Shown piece after piece: positions 15,538-47,508 of a DNA stretch of 64,000 nucleotides. The stretch is from Protonemura montana. Lineage: Eukaryota; Arthropoda; Insecta; Plecoptera; Nemouridae. Both the position numbers and the translations under genes were made by a program. The stretch spans positions 15,861,021 through 15,925,020 of the forward strand of contig OX387602.1 in NCBI GenBank assembly GCA_947568835.1, in the 5' to 3' direction. The notes under the pieces are model-generated. The model had not been told where the DNA came from. It did no database searches and saw only the letters and a list, made by a program, of their open reading frames with translations. Position 1 is the stretch's first letter, and each line of letters starts with the position of its first letter.

Positions 15538-15601
15538 CCGACCAAACTGAACGTTTACAAGAACGACGCGGAGAGTTGGGATTACACCAACCCGAATGTC
15601 G
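15538..15601 (+). CDS. sm: smooth/hnRNP L exon: end of RRM2 and conserved LNVYKND...WDYTNPN segment
   Basis: This 64-base exon encodes PTKLNVYKNDAESWDYTNPN and one further residue. That closely matches the stretch just after RRM2 in animal hnRNP L proteins (human PTRLNVFKNDQDTWDYTNPN). It marks the end of the second RNA-recognition motif and the start of the linker. hnRNP L is a nuclear RNA-binding protein that recognises CA-rich RNA and controls alternative splicing, mRNA stability and export. Drosophila smooth is needed for normal chemosensory axon development and feeding. The acceptor TTGCAG and donor GTGAGT are both strong, and the exon ends in phase 1. RRM1 and most of RRM2 are not in the window. 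Confidence 0.93.
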
Positions 15602-19817: not shown

Positions 19818-22800
19818 TTCGGTGCAGGAGGCGGCGGCGGCGGCAGCTTGCCAGCTCACCGCGTTGACGGCGTCGTCGACGTCGCTGCCGGATAATCCTT
19901 CGCGGCCACGCGGACCCCTCGGCGCTCGTACCCTTGACGTGCAGTTTCAATTTCGTTAGTTATTGCGTTAAAAATGCATTGCATACATGCTTGATTTGAA
20001 TTTCTTATTATCGTAACTCGAATTGGCTAACTGAAGCATATAGTGGCGGTGGCAACTACTGTACAAGTTTCATGAACTATGCAATAGCTAAAAAAAAATT
20101 CCAATCTCACCTCGTTTTAATGTAAAAGCACCCATGCATAGAAATGGTCCAAATTGTTTTCTCAGTCACGCTTCATCAGCGTCGCTGTGCACATTGAGTA
20201 TACCTACCAACCTCCATGCATCTTTCAGCGGGACTGCCGTGTAAAACAAGCCAGAGAATAGAATATTCTAACAATCTATTAATATTTATGATGCTCTCGT
20301 GCTCGTGGATTTAGGAAGCTATCTCGTCAAAACAGAACACGACTTCTGATGGTATCAGAAAATTTAAAAAGAGAATTTTCTTTTTCTCGTTATAACTTTT
20401 GTGCGCGCTTAAATGCGTGCTTTTATGTAACTCGCGAATACCTTAACAAGATAGCCGGCTCCTCGTTCGACATTAACATAATCCAGGTTGCATCTCCATC
20501 CGGCGCTGTTGTTTCAGTCACCCGGTGCCCGTGGGTGGGGTGGGATGTTAGGTGGGGGACAATCTCATTAACCTGCTGGCGTCGACTGCTCCATGCTCTC
20601 TTACCGACGAAAGGGAAGCTGCGAATATCATTGCTAATGTGTCAGACTCGGACTTGTTCCGTGTCAGTTTAGCGCCCCATGCTTTATTGACTTGGTCCAT
20701 TGGCTCAGGCTTTGTCAGGGGAAAATCACTCAACGAACCAAACGGTTTTTTTCCTTACTTGAGATTCGCTGGAAGTTGCCCAAAAACGTGTGTATCTGTG
20801 CTCGTGGCAAGAATCTAACCGAATAAAAAAACTCGATTGTCGTGCCGAGATCAACCTTGTTTCCAGATTAATGGGAAACCTTAGTTTGCACGCTAAAATG
20901 CTTTCCTTACTTCGATCGGTGCTCAAAAAGAAATGCATGCCGCCTCTCTGCAATATCAATAAAACATCCGCCACTTAGCAAGCGGCAAGGCACGTGCATT
21001 TGTCATGCGATTTTGATGGAACTGCACTAGTCAAACGCTTAATGGCGCGATCAATTGAGTACTTGAATTGACAAGTGTCCTTTGTAATCAGCTTGTAATT
21101 GCAACTGTTTGTCGGCACGCTGTGCACTTCTCCGTGCACTCAGTCTTCCATTGAAACTCCTTGCGCCTGGGTCTTATACTCTCAATTGAAGTACGTTGAT
21201 TCGGCAACCGATTGTAGCTACCGACGCCTCGCAAATATACTGCCATTCGTTGGCGACGGGAATCTTTGCTCCACTTTGGTGATATAGTTCCGGGATTTTA
21301 AGTGGGCCAAATTCTTCTCGTATTCCCAACCGCAGAACTGCACGAGATTTAGTTTTGTCGTTTTGTTTTTCTTCTAACGTACATTTTGAACTTTGAGGCT
21401 GACATTTTCCGGGCTAGTTCGGATTAATCTTGTACGCGATTCGCCGATACCGAGGCGAACTTGCCGAGGTAAATGAGTTTTCCATGAGATTTTCCTCCGC
21501 TCTTGCATACTAATTTTTCGGCTATCTTAAACCCAGAATTAGTTTTCTTTTAAAACGTACTCAACCGCTCCGTGACTGCTAGGCACGTTATGTGGTAGCG
21601 CTCGGAAGTCCACTAACTCTGGTCTTCCATTCCCATCTTTCTCAAGCTGTCGTGCCATCAGCCGAACTAAGAAGCAAAATCTTAAATTTCCTCGAGAGCG
21701 CCACACTTTCGTGACAGAAATACAAAATTCGAAATTTATCGCGTCCATTAATTTACAATTTTGCCAAGTCCACGTTTGCCCGTTCCGCCTCCAGACGCGA
21801 TTCCAGACGATTGCAGTTTTAATCCGACTGGATCGGTGGGACACCGTTCCTCCTATTTCCAATTACCCGGTGTGTTCTAGTATCCCCGTCCCCGCCCCTT
21901 CCCCAAACCTGTGCCAGCTCCACCCCGTTGTTATTTGCAGTTGCTGCAACAGCAGCAGGTACCTAAACTTGTTGTCTTGGAGCCAATCTCTAGTACAAAG
22001 ATGTTAAAAATGCACGCCGTCTTGCATAATTGAACGAATAGAGAAAATCTACCGTCCCGTCTAACCCACGTAACTTACCATTATTTTTCCCCTGCTCGGG
22101 CGCTGCCGCCGCTGGCCCCAGAGCCGGCCACACCTGGGATTACCGGCTGCCCCACTTGGATTTCCGCCCCAAGCGCACTTTAAGCCGATTACCGATTTCT
22201 GATAACTGGAAATAAATATTTAAAAAAAAGGAAACAGCCATCCGGGCAGAAAATGAAATAAAAATCGGCGTTTTACCCAGACGTGAAAACATTGGCTATC
22301 GGGTAAATAAATTATGATAGCTAGCTGTTATTTTTTTGATCTCCTCGTATGGGTTATCGCAACCAAAAAGATCACGGATTCAAAAGTTAATACGTAATTT
22401 CCTTTTATCCGTGTGTGCGTACATTTTCAGCCAACTGTTTCCGGGCTCTTTTGTTATCTCTGCAAACCGACGGTCAGCGTGGCATCCCCGTGTGTACCAT
22501 ACCGTGTTCACCATACCCAGCTGGCTTAAATCTTAATAGGCAATTACCTAATCACGGGCTAGATAATGAGCCGAGGATGGGCGGCTGCCGCCAACGCCGT
22601 GCCAACGCCGCGCCAGCGCGCGGTTCGTTCATTAGCCGCTTGGACGACGGCAGGCATGGCAGCGCCAGCTAGTGCAGCGCGCCAACGCCGGCTGGGGACT
22701 TTTAATCCTGAATCTCAATCCTGTTCCCGTGTTTGCCCGTGCAGCTACCACTACCTCCACCGCCGCCGAGCTCGCGTCAATTTATTGCATTGTCTCTTTT

Positions 22801-34644: not shown

Positions 34645-35160
34645 CGTGTTTTTCTTTCACGGCAATTAGAGCTGCGACGCTCGCGGCGGGAATTCTAACC
34701 GGCAATTTTCTTAATCTTACCAGAGCCGACGTCGCGCTAAAAATTGTTTTTCGAGTTTTTTCCCTTTCGCGTTCACGTGCAGCTTAAAAAGTTGCTGCAT
34801 TATTAATTAGTCCTGCCGCGTAGGAATCTTCCCCTGAGTTTCTGCCCATACCCCTGGCAGCTTTTATCTAATGCATGCTAAGTATGTAACGCTGTTGTAG
34901 CTAAGTGTAAGTAGTCTGGAAATTTGTCGATTTGTATGGAGTTGCAGGTGTTTGGGAACCATGGGAAGAAAACGAGGTGATGGGAATTTCTTAACCACCA
35001 ACACGGGGATGTGCCATCTCTATCCTCTACAACCACCTTGCTTATGATAACACTCCTGTACCCATACCAGACCCGTACCAGATCAGTACCAGTTCTAGCA
35101 AGCACCCCGGCATGCCTGATAACGGTGACTACCGGTCCGGTGTCAGCCCACGAAGCGGCC

Positions 35161-35570
35161 AAGGCGCAACCGCCGCAGCCACTACAAGCAACGCTCCTAC
35201 TTCACAACAAATCACAAGAACAACGCACTAAAACACAGCTACTACAACCTAAGAACCAACTATACCAAGAAAACACAAGCCACGGGCATGCACAGAAACC
35301 AACAACAACAACAACAACAACAACAACAAATCAACGATGAAAAAAATACAAGAAAAAAAAAACACAAATGACACAAGGCATGGTGTGGTAACGTAACGTA
35401 ACCAGCGTTGATATGCACAAAGCAGGAAATCGAACACTAAAAATCTTGCACACAGACCAAACAAACAGTCCAGTTGTTTTAAATTCGGTGAAAGCGAGTC
35501 AGGAACACAGCTTAAAAAAATAAAAAATAAAACAGCATCCGACACTGGAAGCACTGGAACGGTGACGATA
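35161..35570 (+). promoter_or_regulatory. CA/ACA-rich cluster, candidate hnRNP L binding region
   Basis: About 400 bases of strongly CA-rich sequence on the sense strand of smooth, including an AAC microsatellite at 35301-35330. ACACAAG occurs at 35273 and 35371 and ACACAAA at 35362; all three fit the ACACRAV type of high-affinity hnRNP L site. GCACACAGACCAAACAAACA lies at about 35448-35467. The cluster ends just before the acceptor of the stop-containing exon at 35611. hnRNP L of vertebrates binds CA repeats and CA-rich clusters and regulates its own splicing through one. The role here is inferred from that parallel and from position. Confidence 0.45.
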
Positions 35571-35610
35571 TTCAATCAGCTGTGACTGACTTGTTTGTCT
35601 ATGTGCGCAG

Positions 35611-35733
35611 GACCTGCCTTGTGCGCGTCAACGTCGAATCCACCACCTTCACCACCACCACCTCCATCTCAAGACCGCCAACGCCACCGCCACTGGCCAG
35701 CGCCAACTCCCGCCGTTTCGCCCGCTGGATAAG
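35611..35733 (+). other. sm: Candidate alternative (poison) exon of smooth
   Basis: The acceptor is GTGCGCAG, after a T-rich tract containing CTGAC branch-like sequence, and the donor is AAG then GTAAAC. Read in the phase left by the 15538-15601 exon, it stays open for 40 codons as a Pro-rich peptide (GPALCASTSN, then a run of prolines, then a His/Arg-rich stretch). It meets TAA at 35730-35732, one base before the donor. It begins with the same GGACCT junction codons as the constitutive-looking exon at 38692. Inclusion would truncate the protein before RRM3 and RRM4, or mark the mRNA for nonsense-mediated decay. It could also be an unrelated non-coding exon or chance. Confidence 0.35.
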
Positions 35734-37614
35734 GTAAACCTTTCACTGCAGTTCTGCAAGCGTGTGTCGTCGCCACGACGTCGCGACGCCGCATCCTTCC
35801 GACGTCGAGTTGCCCAGAGTCGTTTGCTCTCGCCGACCGGGTCCAATGAGGGACTGCCTACGAGATGTCTTAATTTCTGTGTGCTCACCCTTTCGATAAT
35901 AGAGCCACTAAACTAAGATGTAAAATTGAAGGTGTTTCACATTAAAGCTGTCTCGATTACAGGTTTCACGACGTAAGATATTAAGCGTCGTGCCACTTGA
36001 GTTTTTTTTTGCCCCGGTTCTTTCATTGTGCCCGGGAGCAGAGTTTGCTACTGAAACAGTAATCGATTGCCGTCAGCCATCTATTATCGTTCTATTGATG
36101 GATCACGTGGAGTTAATACGAATAATTTAAGTATTGTCCCTGCTCAGCTATCAATTACGTGGGCCTCCATGGTTTCGGGGCCTCGGGGCCCCTATGAAGC
36201 GGTGCTCGCTAACGAAGGGCGACTTTCAGCCGTCGCCGTTCCCGATCCTTGAGCGCCTGTATCACATAATGGCAACAAATGGAAGATTGAGTGAACGCTG
36301 CGCTCGGATAATACGTCGACGCCATAGCTGGTGATTGATTCGTGGTTAATGATCGGACGAAATGAAAATGCTGGAAAAACGCGCCGAAGTGACAGGCTCG
36401 GACTTGGGAAATCTGTTCAACGGCTAAAGATCGGTGATGCTGCTGCTGTGAGCCAGATATTCGATTCCTTTTCACTGGATGACATATTTGCCATGTGGCT
36501 GCTGATACTTTGTATAGTGCATGGTTATTTATGGGGTTATTGTTGACAAATCCACTGGATTGTGGGACCTGTCTCTAAGAGGAAGCAATATAAAAGGAGA
36601 TTTCATATAGTACAACACATTTATTGTGAGCAAATATACTTAAAAGACTTGATTATATTTTATGAATGGCAGGACGTTGGCAGAATGATGCACGTCTTCA
36701 GCTGATGACACTGCGCTGTGTTCGACATTGTCGGTAGAGCGAGCGACGAAGTAAAACATCCGCAGTGGGCGCATCTCGCGAACTGAGTGCAGAGATCATT
36801 CTTTTGATTTCATCTGCACACGTATTTTACTCTGTTGCGATGGTATAAAAATACGCGTCTTGGATCAGGCCATGGCGCACAGCACCTTCGAGGCAAAGAT
36901 TTTGAAAATCCAATATGCAATAAATAAAAGATAGTGCGAGAGAAACCCAAATATTGGTGTTCCCCGCCCACGCTGAACGGGAAGCGAGCGTAAGTTGGCA
37001 GTACCTAGGTTGAACCACGTTCGTCAGATCTTAGGCTTGACTATTCGCGTGGTTCATTCCCCAAAGGTATCATACGTACGTCCCCTCCGTGCCCCAGAAT
37101 ATGCCGATGAAAACTTATTGACCTCTGGGTCTATCTGAGCAATAAACTTGCTCGTGTGCGAGATGCATTAATTCCATCAAACATTTAGAGTCCTTCCTGA
37201 CCCGGAAAATAGCGGCAAGTCTCGGGAAAAGTCAGTGTACAGTCATCCACACAAATCATCGCTGGAGTAAAGTAAGGAAAAAAGCACAAATCATGTAGTG
37301 CATTGTGTAGGACTAAATGTTCTGAGCGAGTGCCGCGGCGTGAATAGCGTTATTTCGCAGCGTTGTGAAAAATACTCTCACGATGTAAACAAAACATTCG
37401 CAATGTTTCTCCACTGTGAAAACACATAGCACTGACTTTCCTCTGAATGAATTTGAAAAGGAAGTTTTCAAATAAATGTGTGTTACAAATCACCACAGCC
37501 CCGAACGCCCATTATCAGACTCGTACCATCGCGCGAGGTATTATCACGGAATATATTGCTCATTTCCGTCCGCATGGTATGCGTAAAAACACTCTAAGAA
37601 ACGGCGCTGTGTAC

Positions 37615-38691: not shown

Positions 38692-38778
38692 GACCTAAAC
38701 AGGATTCTCCCGGTGCACCTATCCGCTCGGCGCCCCTACTGCAAGAGCCCCGATTCGGCGCCGGACCACAGCCATACA
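38692..38778 (+). CDS. sm: smooth/hnRNP L linker exon (possible cassette)
   Basis: This 87-base exon encodes GPKQDSPGAPIRSAPLLQEP, RFGAGPQPY and one further codon start, between a strong acceptor (TTTTGTTGCAG) and donor (GTAAGT). The APLLQEPRFG stretch belongs to the flexible linker between RRM2 and RRM3; human hnRNP L has a QPPLLGD segment at the same place. The exon enters and leaves in phase 1 and its length is a multiple of three. Skipping it would therefore join 15601 directly to 42805 in frame and remove 29 residues. Whether it is skipped in vivo cannot be seen here. Confidence 0.85.
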
Positions 38779-42804: not shown

Positions 42805-43148
42805 GAGGCGAGAGCCGCAGTCTGCCATCGTACGCTTCGTCTCCACCAGACCGATACGAAGACAACTACTCAAATGGCCCGCCCGGCCAGACATACGGAG
42901 GTAATGAACACTACGCAGAGCGCTACCCACTGACTGAGCGCTACCTGAAGCCATCAGGTGAATACGGGCGCGAACCATTGCACCCGTCGCCGCCTCGACC
43001 AGGCTATGCGCTGCCGCAATCGCCAGGCGGACCCAGTGCCACCGTGCCGCAGCAGGGATCCGTCATGATGGTCTACGGTCTCGACCTGGAACGCTTCAAC
43101 GCCGAGAAGCTCTTCAACATCTTCTGTCTCTACGGAAACGTGGTCAGG
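42805..43148 (+). CDS. sm: smooth/hnRNP L exon: linker and first half of RRM3
   Basis: This 344-base exon encodes a Tyr/Gly/Pro/Ser-rich linker of about 75 residues (from GESRSLPSYASSPPDRYEDN to PSATVPQQG), then the start of RRM3. SVMMVYGL is the RNP2 strand (human VLMVYGL), followed by the helix ERFNAEKLFNIFCLYGNVVR. hnRNP L RRM3 contributes to binding CA-rich RNA. The acceptor is TGTACACAG and the donor GTGAGT. The exon enters in phase 1 and leaves in phase 0, after YGNVVR. The low-complexity linker is typical of the family and variable between species. Confidence 0.95.
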
Positions 43149-43660: not shown

Positions 43661-43933
43661 ATCAAATTCTTGAAGACAAAAGAGGGATGCGCAATGATCC
43701 AGATGGGCGACGGAGGTGCCGTGGAACGCTGCGTTCAGAACCTCAACAACGTGCCACTGCTCGGCTCAAAGCTGCAGCTCGGCTTTTCCAAACAAGCATT
43801 CCTCAGCGACGTGCACAATCCCTACCCGTTGCCCGACAAGAGCCCTTCATTCAAAGACTTCATGGGAAACAAGAACAACCGCTTTATAAACCCCGCGATG
43901 GCCAGCAAGAACAGGATACAGCCGCCATCCAAA
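43661..43933 (+). CDS. sm: smooth/hnRNP L exon: second half of RRM3 and RRM3-RRM4 linker
   Basis: This 273-base exon of 91 codons is in phase 0 at both ends. It opens with IKFLKTKEGCAMIQMGDGGA, which carries the RNP1-like strand (human VKFMKSKPGAAMVEMADG). It continues through the helix AVERCVQNLNN and the last strand KLQLGFSKQAF. It then has the conserved inter-domain segment SFKDFMGNKNNRF, followed by NPAMASKNRIQPPSK; human hnRNP L has SYKDFSESRNNRF and AAKNRIQHPS. RRM3 and RRM4 of hnRNP L pack against each other, and this linker is part of that interface. Acceptor CCGCAG, donor GTGAGT. Confidence 0.96.
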
Positions 43934-44873: not shown

Positions 44874-44985
44874 ATTCTGCACTTCTTCAACACACCACCC
44901 GGTCTAGAAGAGGACCTGCTAAAGAGCGTCTTCGACGAATACAAAGTGACACCTCCGAAGACAATTAAACTCTTCCCACTTAAAA
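44874..44985 (+). CDS. sm: smooth/hnRNP L exon: first part of RRM4
   Basis: This 112-base exon encodes ILHFFNTPPGLEEDLLKSVF, then DEYKVTPPKTIKLFPLK. That is the RNP2 strand and first helix of RRM4 (human VLHFFNAPLEVTEENFFEIC, then KVFSGK). It starts in phase 0 after a strong TTTTTCAG acceptor and ends in phase 1 at GTAAGC. RRM4 is the C-terminal RNA-binding domain, which packs with RRM3. Confidence 0.95.
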
Positions 44986-45327: not shown

Positions 45328-45423
45328 CCGACAGGAGCTCATCGGGGCTGCTGGAGTTCGATGAGATTGGTGATGCAGTCAACGCACTCATGATGTGCAA
45401 CCACGTACCTATTGAAAACCCAA
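45328..45423 (+). CDS. sm: smooth/hnRNP L exon: RRM4 RNP1 region
   Basis: This 96-base exon, phase 1 at both ends, encodes DRSSSGLLEFDEIGDAVNAL, then MMCNHVPIENP. SSSGLLEF is the RNP1-like strand of RRM4 (human SERSSSGLLEWESKSDALET). The acceptor is CATTTCAG and the donor GTGAGT. Although its length is a multiple of three, skipping it would remove the RNP1 strand, so it is probably constitutive. Confidence 0.95.
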
Positions 45424-46501: not shown

Positions 46502-46935
46502 CACCGAATGGTTTGGTGTGTTGGAAACACCGGTTCTCGTGAGATCACCTAAGTTAAGGAACACTGCGCTGAGTCAGGTATTGGATGGGTGACCATCATA
46601 CACATGACCAGTTTGGTTCGGGAGAGAGGTTGGAGGGATGAAAGTTAGTACAACAAATTCATCCGCCTTGCTTATCAACCTCTTGACAGCATGGATTTGT
46701 GGAGAAATCCTGCTGTTCGAGTAGTACCGTCCTTCAGAAGGGACATTAAGCCGGTGGTCCCCATGGTGCTCTTCGATAGGAGTAGGCTACGTGCTGGCAC
46801 CGGGTTTACCCTCCTCCCTTCTAGGCTAGGTTAGCTTCATCCTCATCGTCATCCACTCATTCACCGACACCATTAGACCACTGCCACATGGCCAGATGTC
46901 AAAACAGAATGCTTTTAAACACCACAAATCAATCA
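46502..46935 (+). mobile_element. 5S rRNA-derived SINE (SINE3 type)
   Basis: The 5' part resembles 5S rRNA: GGTTCTCGT (46532), GATCACC (46543), the box A word AAGTTAAG (46551-46558), and the box C word GATGGGTGACC (46584-46594) at 5S-like spacing. 5S genes carry an internal RNA polymerase III promoter, which SINE3-type elements use. The 3' body ends with an AATC-type tail (AAATCAATCA). The insertion is flanked by an exact 10-bp duplication, as expected of LINE-mediated insertion. It is on the same strand as smooth. The 5S-like part has lost the 5S 3' end and has several mismatches, so it is not a functional 5S gene. Confidence 0.8.
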
Positions 46936-47407: not shown

Positions 47408-47508
47408 GTGGCAAGTTCCCGTACCTGATGAAGCTGTGCTTCTCCTCCTCACGGCAGATCCCCAACATGATTCGAGGGCAGGCCGATAAAGACGATCTTG
47501 ACGAGTAG
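47408..47508 (+). CDS. sm: smooth/hnRNP L last coding exon: end of RRM4 and C terminus
   Basis: The exon enters in phase 1, after TTTTGTAG, and encodes GKFPYLMKLCFSSSRQIPNM and then an acidic tail, IRGQADKDDLDE, before TAG at 47506-47508. FPYLMKLCFSSS is the last strand of RRM4 (human YPYTLKLCFSTAQHAS, where the protein ends). The extra acidic C terminus is longer than in human hnRNP L. The seven exons add up to 1077 coding bases, 358 residues, without a phase error. The stop is followed directly by a long 3' UTR. Confidence 0.95.

What the first reader, a model, noticed from the sequence alone, without database searches (positions are those of the whole stretch)
35161..35733. CA-rich cluster followed by a stop-containing exon in smooth: possible autoregulatory poison exon
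Seen: about 400 bases of CA/ACA-rich sense-strand sequence, with three ACACRAV-type sites, lie immediately before a well-formed acceptor. The 123-base exon-like stretch behind it reads in frame from the upstream smooth exon and hits TAA one base before a GTAAAC donor. Known: vertebrate hnRNP L binds CA repeats and CA-rich clusters and limits its own level by promoting a poison exon next to a CA cluster in its own pre-mRNA, leading to nonsense-mediated decay. Inference: this arthropod gene uses the same logic. If true, the feedback circuit is either ancient or evolved twice. A truncated protein without RRM3 and RRM4 is the alternative outcome.
Basis: partly seen in the sequence, partly recalled or inferred. 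Interest (0 to 1): 0.8.

Follow-up and report, generated by a model that had tools for sequence, protein, structure and literature searches.

The report
Candidate poison exon in smooth gene
In an unnamed insect's gene for the RNA-binding protein Smooth (hnRNP L), a stop-containing exon candidate sits behind an unusually A- and C-rich stretch, in the intron corresponding to the one where the human gene keeps its self-limiting poison exon, so a feedback circuit known in mammals may also exist in insects.

Summary
The gene is smooth/hnRNP L of an insect whose closest hits are Orthoptera and termites. A 123-nt, phase 1-1 exon candidate (35611-35733) reads from exon 15538-15601 to TAA one base before the donor. 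Its splice-site pair ranks 4 of 12,985 in the 23,090-nt intron, but shuffled introns hold about one equally good pair, so splice sites alone prove nothing. The A+C-rich block before it belongs to the only such cluster in 144 kb on both strands, and 200 kb sampled elsewhere has none. ACACRAV counts, however, equal what that composition predicts.

The new point is the place. Human HNRNPL exon 6A, an autoregulatory poison exon, lies between the corresponding exons, and junction residues fit a phase-1 intron in vertebrates and flies. Nineteen drosophilid species have predicted short isoforms diverging there, one exon being read in two frames.

Against it: the peptide tail has no relative, no RNA or genomic alignment was available, and the sign of regulation is unknown. 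Real stop exon about 0.65; hnRNP L-like feedback about 0.45.

The parts
15538..15601 (+). smooth exon encoding the end of RRM2 (PTKLNVYKNDAESWDYTNPNV + G); its donor opens the 23,090-nt intron
   Evidence: tblastn with Schistocerca P0001, 95.7% identity over 23 aa; boundaries
35161..35570 (+). A+C-rich block on the sense strand, presumed Smooth/hnRNP L binding region; three ACACRAV sites (35273, 35362, 35371) and (CAA)10 at 35300-35329
   Evidence: A+C 0.715; part of the only such cluster in 144 kb, both strands; none in 200 kb sampled; one match of 34900-35800 in the genome
35586..35590 (+). branch-point-like CTGAC, A 22 nt before the exon, no AG between
35591..35610 (+). pyrimidine-rich acceptor TTGTTTGTCTATGTGCGCAG
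   Evidence: score 4.97; 13 of 1112 AG sites in the intron reach it, itself included
35611..35733 (+). candidate stop-containing cassette exon, 123 nt, phase 1-1, peptide GPALCASTSNPPPSPPPPPSQDRQRHRHWPAPTPAVSPAG*
35730..35732 (+). premature TAA, one base before the junction; six exon junctions follow it
35734..35739 (+). donor GTAAAC
   Evidence: score 3.30; 16 of 1283 GT sites in the intron reach it, itself included
38692..38778 (+). next constitutive exon (linker: PKQDSPGAPIRSAPLLQEPRFGAGPQPY)
42805..43148 (+). linker and start of RRM3
43661..43933 (+). RRM3 exon
44874..44985 (+). RRM4 exon
45328..45423 (+). RRM4 exon
47408..47508 (+). last coding exon with stop TAG

Best explanation
35611-35733 is a regulated cassette exon of smooth. 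When Smooth is abundant it binds the A+C-rich RNA just upstream (35161-35570) and promotes recognition of the otherwise moderate acceptor. Inclusion joins 15601^35611 and 35733^38692, translation stops at TAA 35730-35732 before RRM3 and RRM4, and with six exon junctions still downstream the mRNA should be removed by nonsense-mediated decay, or give a 186-aa protein with only the first RRM. That is negative feedback of the HNRNPL exon 6A type in the corresponding intron. Shown: gene, exon map, frame, stop, sites, composition, corresponding intron. Inferred: splicing of the exon, binding, sign, decay.
For: Complete 483-aa smooth gene model with every junction in frame. Rank 4 of 12,985 site pairs. 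The A+C cluster is the only one of its kind in 144 kb and is absent from 200 kb sampled; the region matches once in the genome; the block ends 40 nt before the exon, at one of the two pairs in the intron with sites this good. Human exon 6A sits between the corresponding exons, is described as highly conserved and activated by HNRNPL and as NMD-reactive (Delta-Psi 0.64 on UPF1 knockdown), with hnRNP L bound immediately upstream. All 28 fly-type and all 32 vertebrate-type rows have a residue with a G-first codon (G, V, E or D) at the junction, as expected of a phase-1 intron like this one. Nineteen drosophilid species have predicted short isoforms diverging there, and 4 of 8 isoform pairs tested read as one DNA in two frames with scores 30, 30, 38 and 91 against a null maximum of 9-10 (60 shuffles each). 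CA-rich motifs are reported to bind Smooth (PMC5694756 passage citing Ray et al. 2013).
Against: Shuffled introns hold about one equally good site pair. Motif count equals that expected from composition. No relative of the peptide tail: of 66 candidates 8 matched with E up to 10 (best 0.018), and all 8 rest on the RRM2 end KLNVYKNDAESWDYT. The readable fly exon is not strikingly A+C-rich (0.47 overall in D. grimshawi, 0.58-0.70 only in its last 93 nt). In other arthropod rows a few junction residues are not G-first (N, S, W). hnRNP L bound upstream of cassette exons usually represses, so the sign may be opposite. No RNA evidence.
Confidence: 0.45

Rival explanations
1. A real alternative exon makes a stable short Smooth (186 aa, first RRM only), a functional isoform rather than a decay substrate; the A+C block may bind other factors or none.
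For: Predicted short isoforms are annotated as proteins in 19 drosophilid species. NMD in flies depends less on exon junctions (recalled).
Against: The fly exon is read in two frames, so a fixed peptide is not what is kept; the tail here has no relative; the human counterpart protein is called almost undetectable by Western blot, though the authors add that their antibody may not recognise it (PMC6885243 passages).
Confidence: 0.15
2. Chance pseudo-exon: a moderate acceptor and donor that happen to frame an open stretch in a 23-kb intron, never spliced.
For: 1.13-1.26 such pairs per shuffled intron; 64% of 100 shuffles have at least one. Another equally good pair exists at 21795-21869.
Against: It coincides with the only A+C cluster of this strength in 344 kb examined, in a CA-binding protein's own gene, in the intron where the human stop exon and predicted fly stop exons lie.
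Confidence: 0.25
3. The A+C-rich region is itself exonic: an alternative first exon (5' UTR) ending at donor 35733, or an alternative last or long exon from acceptor 35071 (or 34724/34783) with stop and poly(A) signals AATAAA at 35519 and 35526.
For: A+C-rich, CAA-repeat sequence resembles insect UTRs (recalled). From 35071 the smooth frame stays open for 53 codons to TAA at 35229-35231; two AATAAA lie before a TG-rich stretch.
Against: Of 7 upstream acceptors scoring above -1 between 34600 and 35610 the best is 3.06 and 35071 has 0.31, against 4.97 for 35611; A+C-richness is broken exactly by a branch-point and pyrimidine stretch (T 0.38 in 35571-35610 against 0.13 before it), and base composition differs on its two sides; A-rich DNA gives AATAAA easily.
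Confidence: 0.1
4. Same exon and cluster, opposite sign: Smooth bound upstream represses the exon, so low Smooth gives truncation (positive feedback or a switch).
For: General hnRNP L rule: upstream binding represses, downstream binding activates (PMC7547044 passage).
Against: Human exon 6A is described as activated by hnRNP L bound just upstream.
Confidence: 0.05

Closest known systems
Human HNRNPL poison exon 6A (called exon 7 in PMC6885243), Rossbach et al. 2009 (not read; known through other papers)
   Same: Same gene family; corresponding intron between the RRM2-end exon and the linker exon; junction residues compatible with phase 1; in-frame stop; protein would lack RRM3 and RRM4; hnRNP L binding region described immediately upstream, as the A+C block is here.
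   Different: Human exon is 70 nt (coordinates of PMC6547761), here 123 nt and a multiple of 3; no similarity of the encoded tails seen; feedback shown in human cells, untested here.
Predicted truncated smooth isoforms of drosophilids (labels X6 to X25, 19 species)
   Same: Diverge at the corresponding junction (DYTLST|), stop-containing exon, residues compatible with phase 1.
   Different: Exon longer (273 nt readable in D. grimshawi), used in two frames, less A+C-rich in the readable part; NMD or autoregulation of it was not found in the papers listed.
Smndc1/SPF30 autoregulatory poison exon
   Same: Precedent for very deep conservation of a poison-exon circuit (mammals and plants; abstract).
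   Different: Other gene, other binding logic.

Membership tests
HNRNPL exon 6A-type autoregulatory poison exon | Host gene is an hnRNP L ortholog | tested here: met
   Best hit Schistocerca hnRNP L, 75% identity over 98% of the 358-aa query; complete gene model. Paralogs in this genome could not be checked
HNRNPL exon 6A-type autoregulatory poison exon | Lies in the intron between the RRM2-end exon and the linker exon, phase 1 | tested here: met
   Phase 1 from DNA here; human flanking primers encode QDTWDYTN and DHPAEY; junction residues G-first in 32 of 32 vertebrate-type and 28 of 28 fly-type rows, inferred from proteins, not genomic DNA
HNRNPL exon 6A-type autoregulatory poison exon | In-frame premature stop with exon junctions downstream | tested here: met
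   TAA 35730-35732, six junctions follow
HNRNPL exon 6A-type autoregulatory poison exon | CA-rich region immediately upstream | tested here: met
   A+C 0.715 in 410 nt, in the only such cluster of 144 kb and not reached in 200 kb sampled; ACACRAV number not above composition
HNRNPL exon 6A-type autoregulatory poison exon | Exon sequence conserved among relatives | tested here: inconclusive
   Peptide tail without relatives; no related genome available for a DNA alignment
HNRNPL exon 6A-type autoregulatory poison exon | Own protein binds and promotes inclusion | not testable with these tools
   needs CLIP, knockdown or overexpression
HNRNPL exon 6A-type autoregulatory poison exon | Included mRNA is an NMD substrate | not testable with these tools
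   needs RNA after UPF1 knockdown or cycloheximide

The most novel reading that the evidence does not exclude
Probability: 0.3. Interest if true: 0.8.

Novelty: new member of a known kind. Interest (0 to 1): 0.55.

Why it matters
Poison-exon autoregulation of hnRNP L is known from mammals. [quoted passage not shown] elegans (PMC8652244 passage), and no report for smooth appeared among the papers listed. A stop exon in the corresponding intron of this insect and of flies makes 'ancient or evolved twice' a directly testable question with existing fly tools.

Tried and rejected
Splice-site rank as sole proof: rejected, because shuffles match it. Motif enrichment as proof of binding: rejected, because it equals composition. 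Peptide conservation: none found; that search only reaches proteins of 102-325 aa or so sharing exact 5-residue words. Naming the organism Nemurella pictetii: rejected, because 20 scaffolds with longest 37.3 Mb do not fit 34 contigs with C1 33.1 Mb. Repeat or transposon origin of the block: no second copy found (the DNA search skips simple repeats). Counterparts of the fly, human, Cotesia and ant/bee peptides in the 144 kb: none of 8 short peptide patterns found in six frames. Fly exon as strongly CA-rich: not supported. The position weights used for splice scoring were recalled metazoan values, not trained on this genome.

Full report
WHAT THE GENE IS. The window lies in a 258-Mb genome of 34 contigs, at C1:15861021-15925020. 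Its + strand carries smooth, the insect hnRNP L gene. Conserved exons give a 358-aa C-terminal part, 75% identical to Schistocerca americana hnRNP L over 98% of its length; other top hits are termites, a katydid and a cricket. With 80 kb of upstream DNA tblastn gave the remaining exons, and a complete 483-aa model was assembled with all junctions in frame. The species was not identified.

THE OBSERVATION. The intron 15602-38691 is 23,090 nt. Within it 35611-35733 has an acceptor, a donor, a length of 123 nt and phase 1-1, and reads 40 codons from the upstream exon to TAA at 35730-35732, one base before the junction. The product would be 186 aa, with the first RRM only; six exon junctions follow the stop.

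HOW UNUSUAL IT IS. With recalled metazoan position weights the acceptor scores 4.97 (13 of 1112 AG sites reach this, itself included) and the donor 3.30 (16 of 1283 GT sites); the gene's ten constitutive GT-AG acceptors span 1.94-10.71 and its ten GT donors 2.73-7.05. The pair ranks 4 of 12,985 pairs of 40-250 nt and is one of two with both sites at least this good; the other is 21795-21869. Dinucleotide shuffles in 500-nt blocks give 1.13 (100 shuffles, 64% with at least one) and 1.26 (200 shuffles) such pairs, so the site pair alone is not evidence. It also has a CTGAC branch-point candidate 22 nt before the exon with no AG between; only this pair in the intron has that, against 0.05 per shuffle, but the criterion was chosen after the fact and 1 of 7 constitutive acceptors of the window meets it.

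The sense-strand block 35161-35570 is A 0.47, C 0.25, G 0.16, T 0.13, A+C 0.715. Of 143,591 windows of 410 nt in 144 kb, 57 reach this value on the + strand; all 57 form one cluster (starts 35049-35169, peak 0.724 at 35144-35553), the rest of the + strand reaches at most 0.644 and the - strand 0.624. In 20 pieces of 10 kb from contigs C1-C5 and C16 no window on either strand exceeds 0.659. The 901 bases 34900-35800 match once in the genome (that search skips simple repeats). The three ACACRAV sites are 15 times the intron's density but just what the block's dinucleotides predict (2.97), so the composition is what stands out. A+C-richness continues into the exon (0.66) and is interrupted by the branch-point and pyrimidine stretch.

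THE CORRESPONDING INTRON IN HUMANS. In PMC6885243 (passages seen) human hnRNP L has an alternative exon with an in-frame stop whose inclusion hnRNP L promotes; included transcripts are degraded or encode a protein without RRM3 and RRM4. The printed primers translate to QDTWDYTN (upstream exon), TPSFRTV (the stop exon) and, reversed, DHPAEY (downstream exon). Protein records P0185 and P0223 end SGQGSQCMFDGTPSFRTVLTH[SC], matching the stop exon and diverging right after DYTNPNLSGQG. PMC8652244 says intron 6 holds a highly conserved poison exon 6A activated by HNRNPL (passage); PMC7547044 says binding is immediately upstream (passage); PMC6547761 lists it as NMD-reactive (passages). The primary paper (Rossbach 2009) is not held. 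The insect exon pair DYTNPNV|G and PKQDSPG...APLLQEPRFG is the counterpart of DYTNPNLSGQ|G and DPGSNPNKRQRQPPLLGDHPAEYG.

THE CORRESPONDING JUNCTION IN FLIES. A search with the 186-aa form gave 233 proteins, 120 listed. Among the listed, 28 rows contain TSWDYTL. Two are from other flies (P0139 Lucilia, P0163 Teleopsis); the other 26 are from 19 drosophilid species (18 Drosophila and Scaptodrosophila lebanonensis). Of these 26, four D. arizonae rows (P0134, P0161, P0170, P0171) run on into RRM3 and are not of this kind (D. arizonae still counts through P0166), and P0237 is a fragment with a different tail; the rest have alternative tails after DYTLST. These are predicted gene models; whether they decay is not known here. 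Residues after the junction are G 24, V 3, E 1 of 28 in fly-type rows and G 30, D 1, V 1 of 32 in vertebrate-type rows, all with codons starting in G, as a phase-1 intron after a final G would give. In other arthropod and similar patterns of the same call most are G too, but N, S and W also occur: 45 rows of SWDYTxPxx give G 41 and A, E, N, S one each; 27 of SWDFTNPN[VI] give G 26, W 1; 41 of NPN[LP] give G 38, N 2, S 1 (some rows counted twice).

Tails of different isoforms are the same DNA in two frames. Of 8 isoform pairs tested in two frame shifts, four gave +1 scores of 30 (P0143/P0145), 30 (P0143/P0148), 38 (P0154/P0175) and 91 (P0144/P0141, both D. grimshawi) against null maxima of 9-10 in 60 shuffles each; P0153/P0154 gave 15 (+2, null 11) and P0155/P0150 11 (+1, null 8); P0169/P0166 (9, null 9) and P0151/P0147 (6 and 7, null 7 and 9) gave nothing above the null. 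The exon is thus kept without a fixed peptide, as expected of a regulatory stop exon. The 273 nt of it readable from the two frames in D. grimshawi have A+C 0.47 overall and 0.58-0.70 in the last 93 nt, so the fly exon is not strikingly CA-rich.

RESULTS AGAINST. A search restricted to residues 128-186 gave 66 candidates and 8 matches with E up to 10 (best 0.018); aligned again, 7 of them stop within 31 residues and P0243 trails on weakly, so all rest on the RRM2 end: the tail has no relative found. Several hymenopteran short forms read GES or similar as if the donor GTGAGT were retained (P0122, P0242, P0244, P0245), while two Cotesia-type records (P0246, P0247) share another tail, EYFWSLFYHQ. 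No transcript or related genome was available. General hnRNP L rules put activation downstream and repression upstream, so the sign here rests on analogy with exon 6A. Readings of the region as a UTR or terminal exon are possible: from a weak acceptor at 35071 the frame is open for 53 codons to TAA at 35229-35231, and AATAAA occurs at 35519 and 35526.

LITERATURE. Searches for smooth or HNRNPL with hnRNP L, CA-rich, poison exon, autoregulation, Drosophila and invertebrate (7 of 7 papers listed; 15 of 56; 12 of 13; 1 of 1) showed no title or abstract start reporting a poison exon or autoregulation of smooth. In PMC2689934 (Drosophila NMD) the word smooth occurs 4 times, as 'smoothed scatterplot' or 'smoother' in the passages seen; in PMC13253536 once, in a reference; supplements could not be read. 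PMC8652244's reference list names Lareau and Brenner 2015 on AS-NMD of splicing factors conserved between kingdoms (title only). CA-rich motifs are said to bind Smooth in PMC5694756 (passages). Deep conservation of a poison-exon circuit has a precedent in Smndc1 (PMC11357089, abstract).

VERDICT. A good candidate: exon real about 0.65, hnRNP L-like feedback about 0.45, ancestral circuit about 0.3.

Noticed in passing
upstream of the window, window coordinates -12984 to -4022 (L002:7016 to L001:5978): The intron inside the RRM2-coding part looks like a U12-type AT-AC intron: ATATCCTTT donor, TTCCTTAAC branch site, CAC end (class recalled, not scored). Protein models of a wasp, an ant and a beetle (P0015, P0122, P0233) read VEYPF or VEYPL there, as if the donor ATATCCTTT were translated. 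Two U12 papers have no occurrence of smooth or hnRNP in their main text.
   Followed up: partly
46503-46618: 5S rRNA-like sequence on the + strand inside the last intron of smooth, Rfam RF00001 44.2 bits; probably a 5S-derived SINE (my inference).
   Followed up: no
21795-21869: Second equally good site pair in the same intron: 75 nt, open in the smooth frame (DAIPDDCSFNPTGSVGHRSSYFQLP), possibly an in-frame cassette exon.
   Followed up: no
35071-35231: Smooth frame open for 53 codons from a weak acceptor (DPYQISTSSSKHPGMPDNGDYRSGVSPRSGQG...), running into the A+C-rich cluster.
   Followed up: partly
proteins P0038, P0084 (bees) and P0034 (ant): Predicted proteins share an N-terminus MLECLSVCRCSLLVV[DH]L.VMMDS; in the two bee records it stands shortly before linker sequence, suggesting a conserved DNA element near that exon in Hymenoptera.
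   Followed up: no
protein P0004 (Anabrus): Isoform has GGTFDELKQYYPPAKRSLLGGD... in place of the linker exon, another alternative exon at the same junction; no counterpart in the 144 kb by tblastn at E up to 1.
   Followed up: partly
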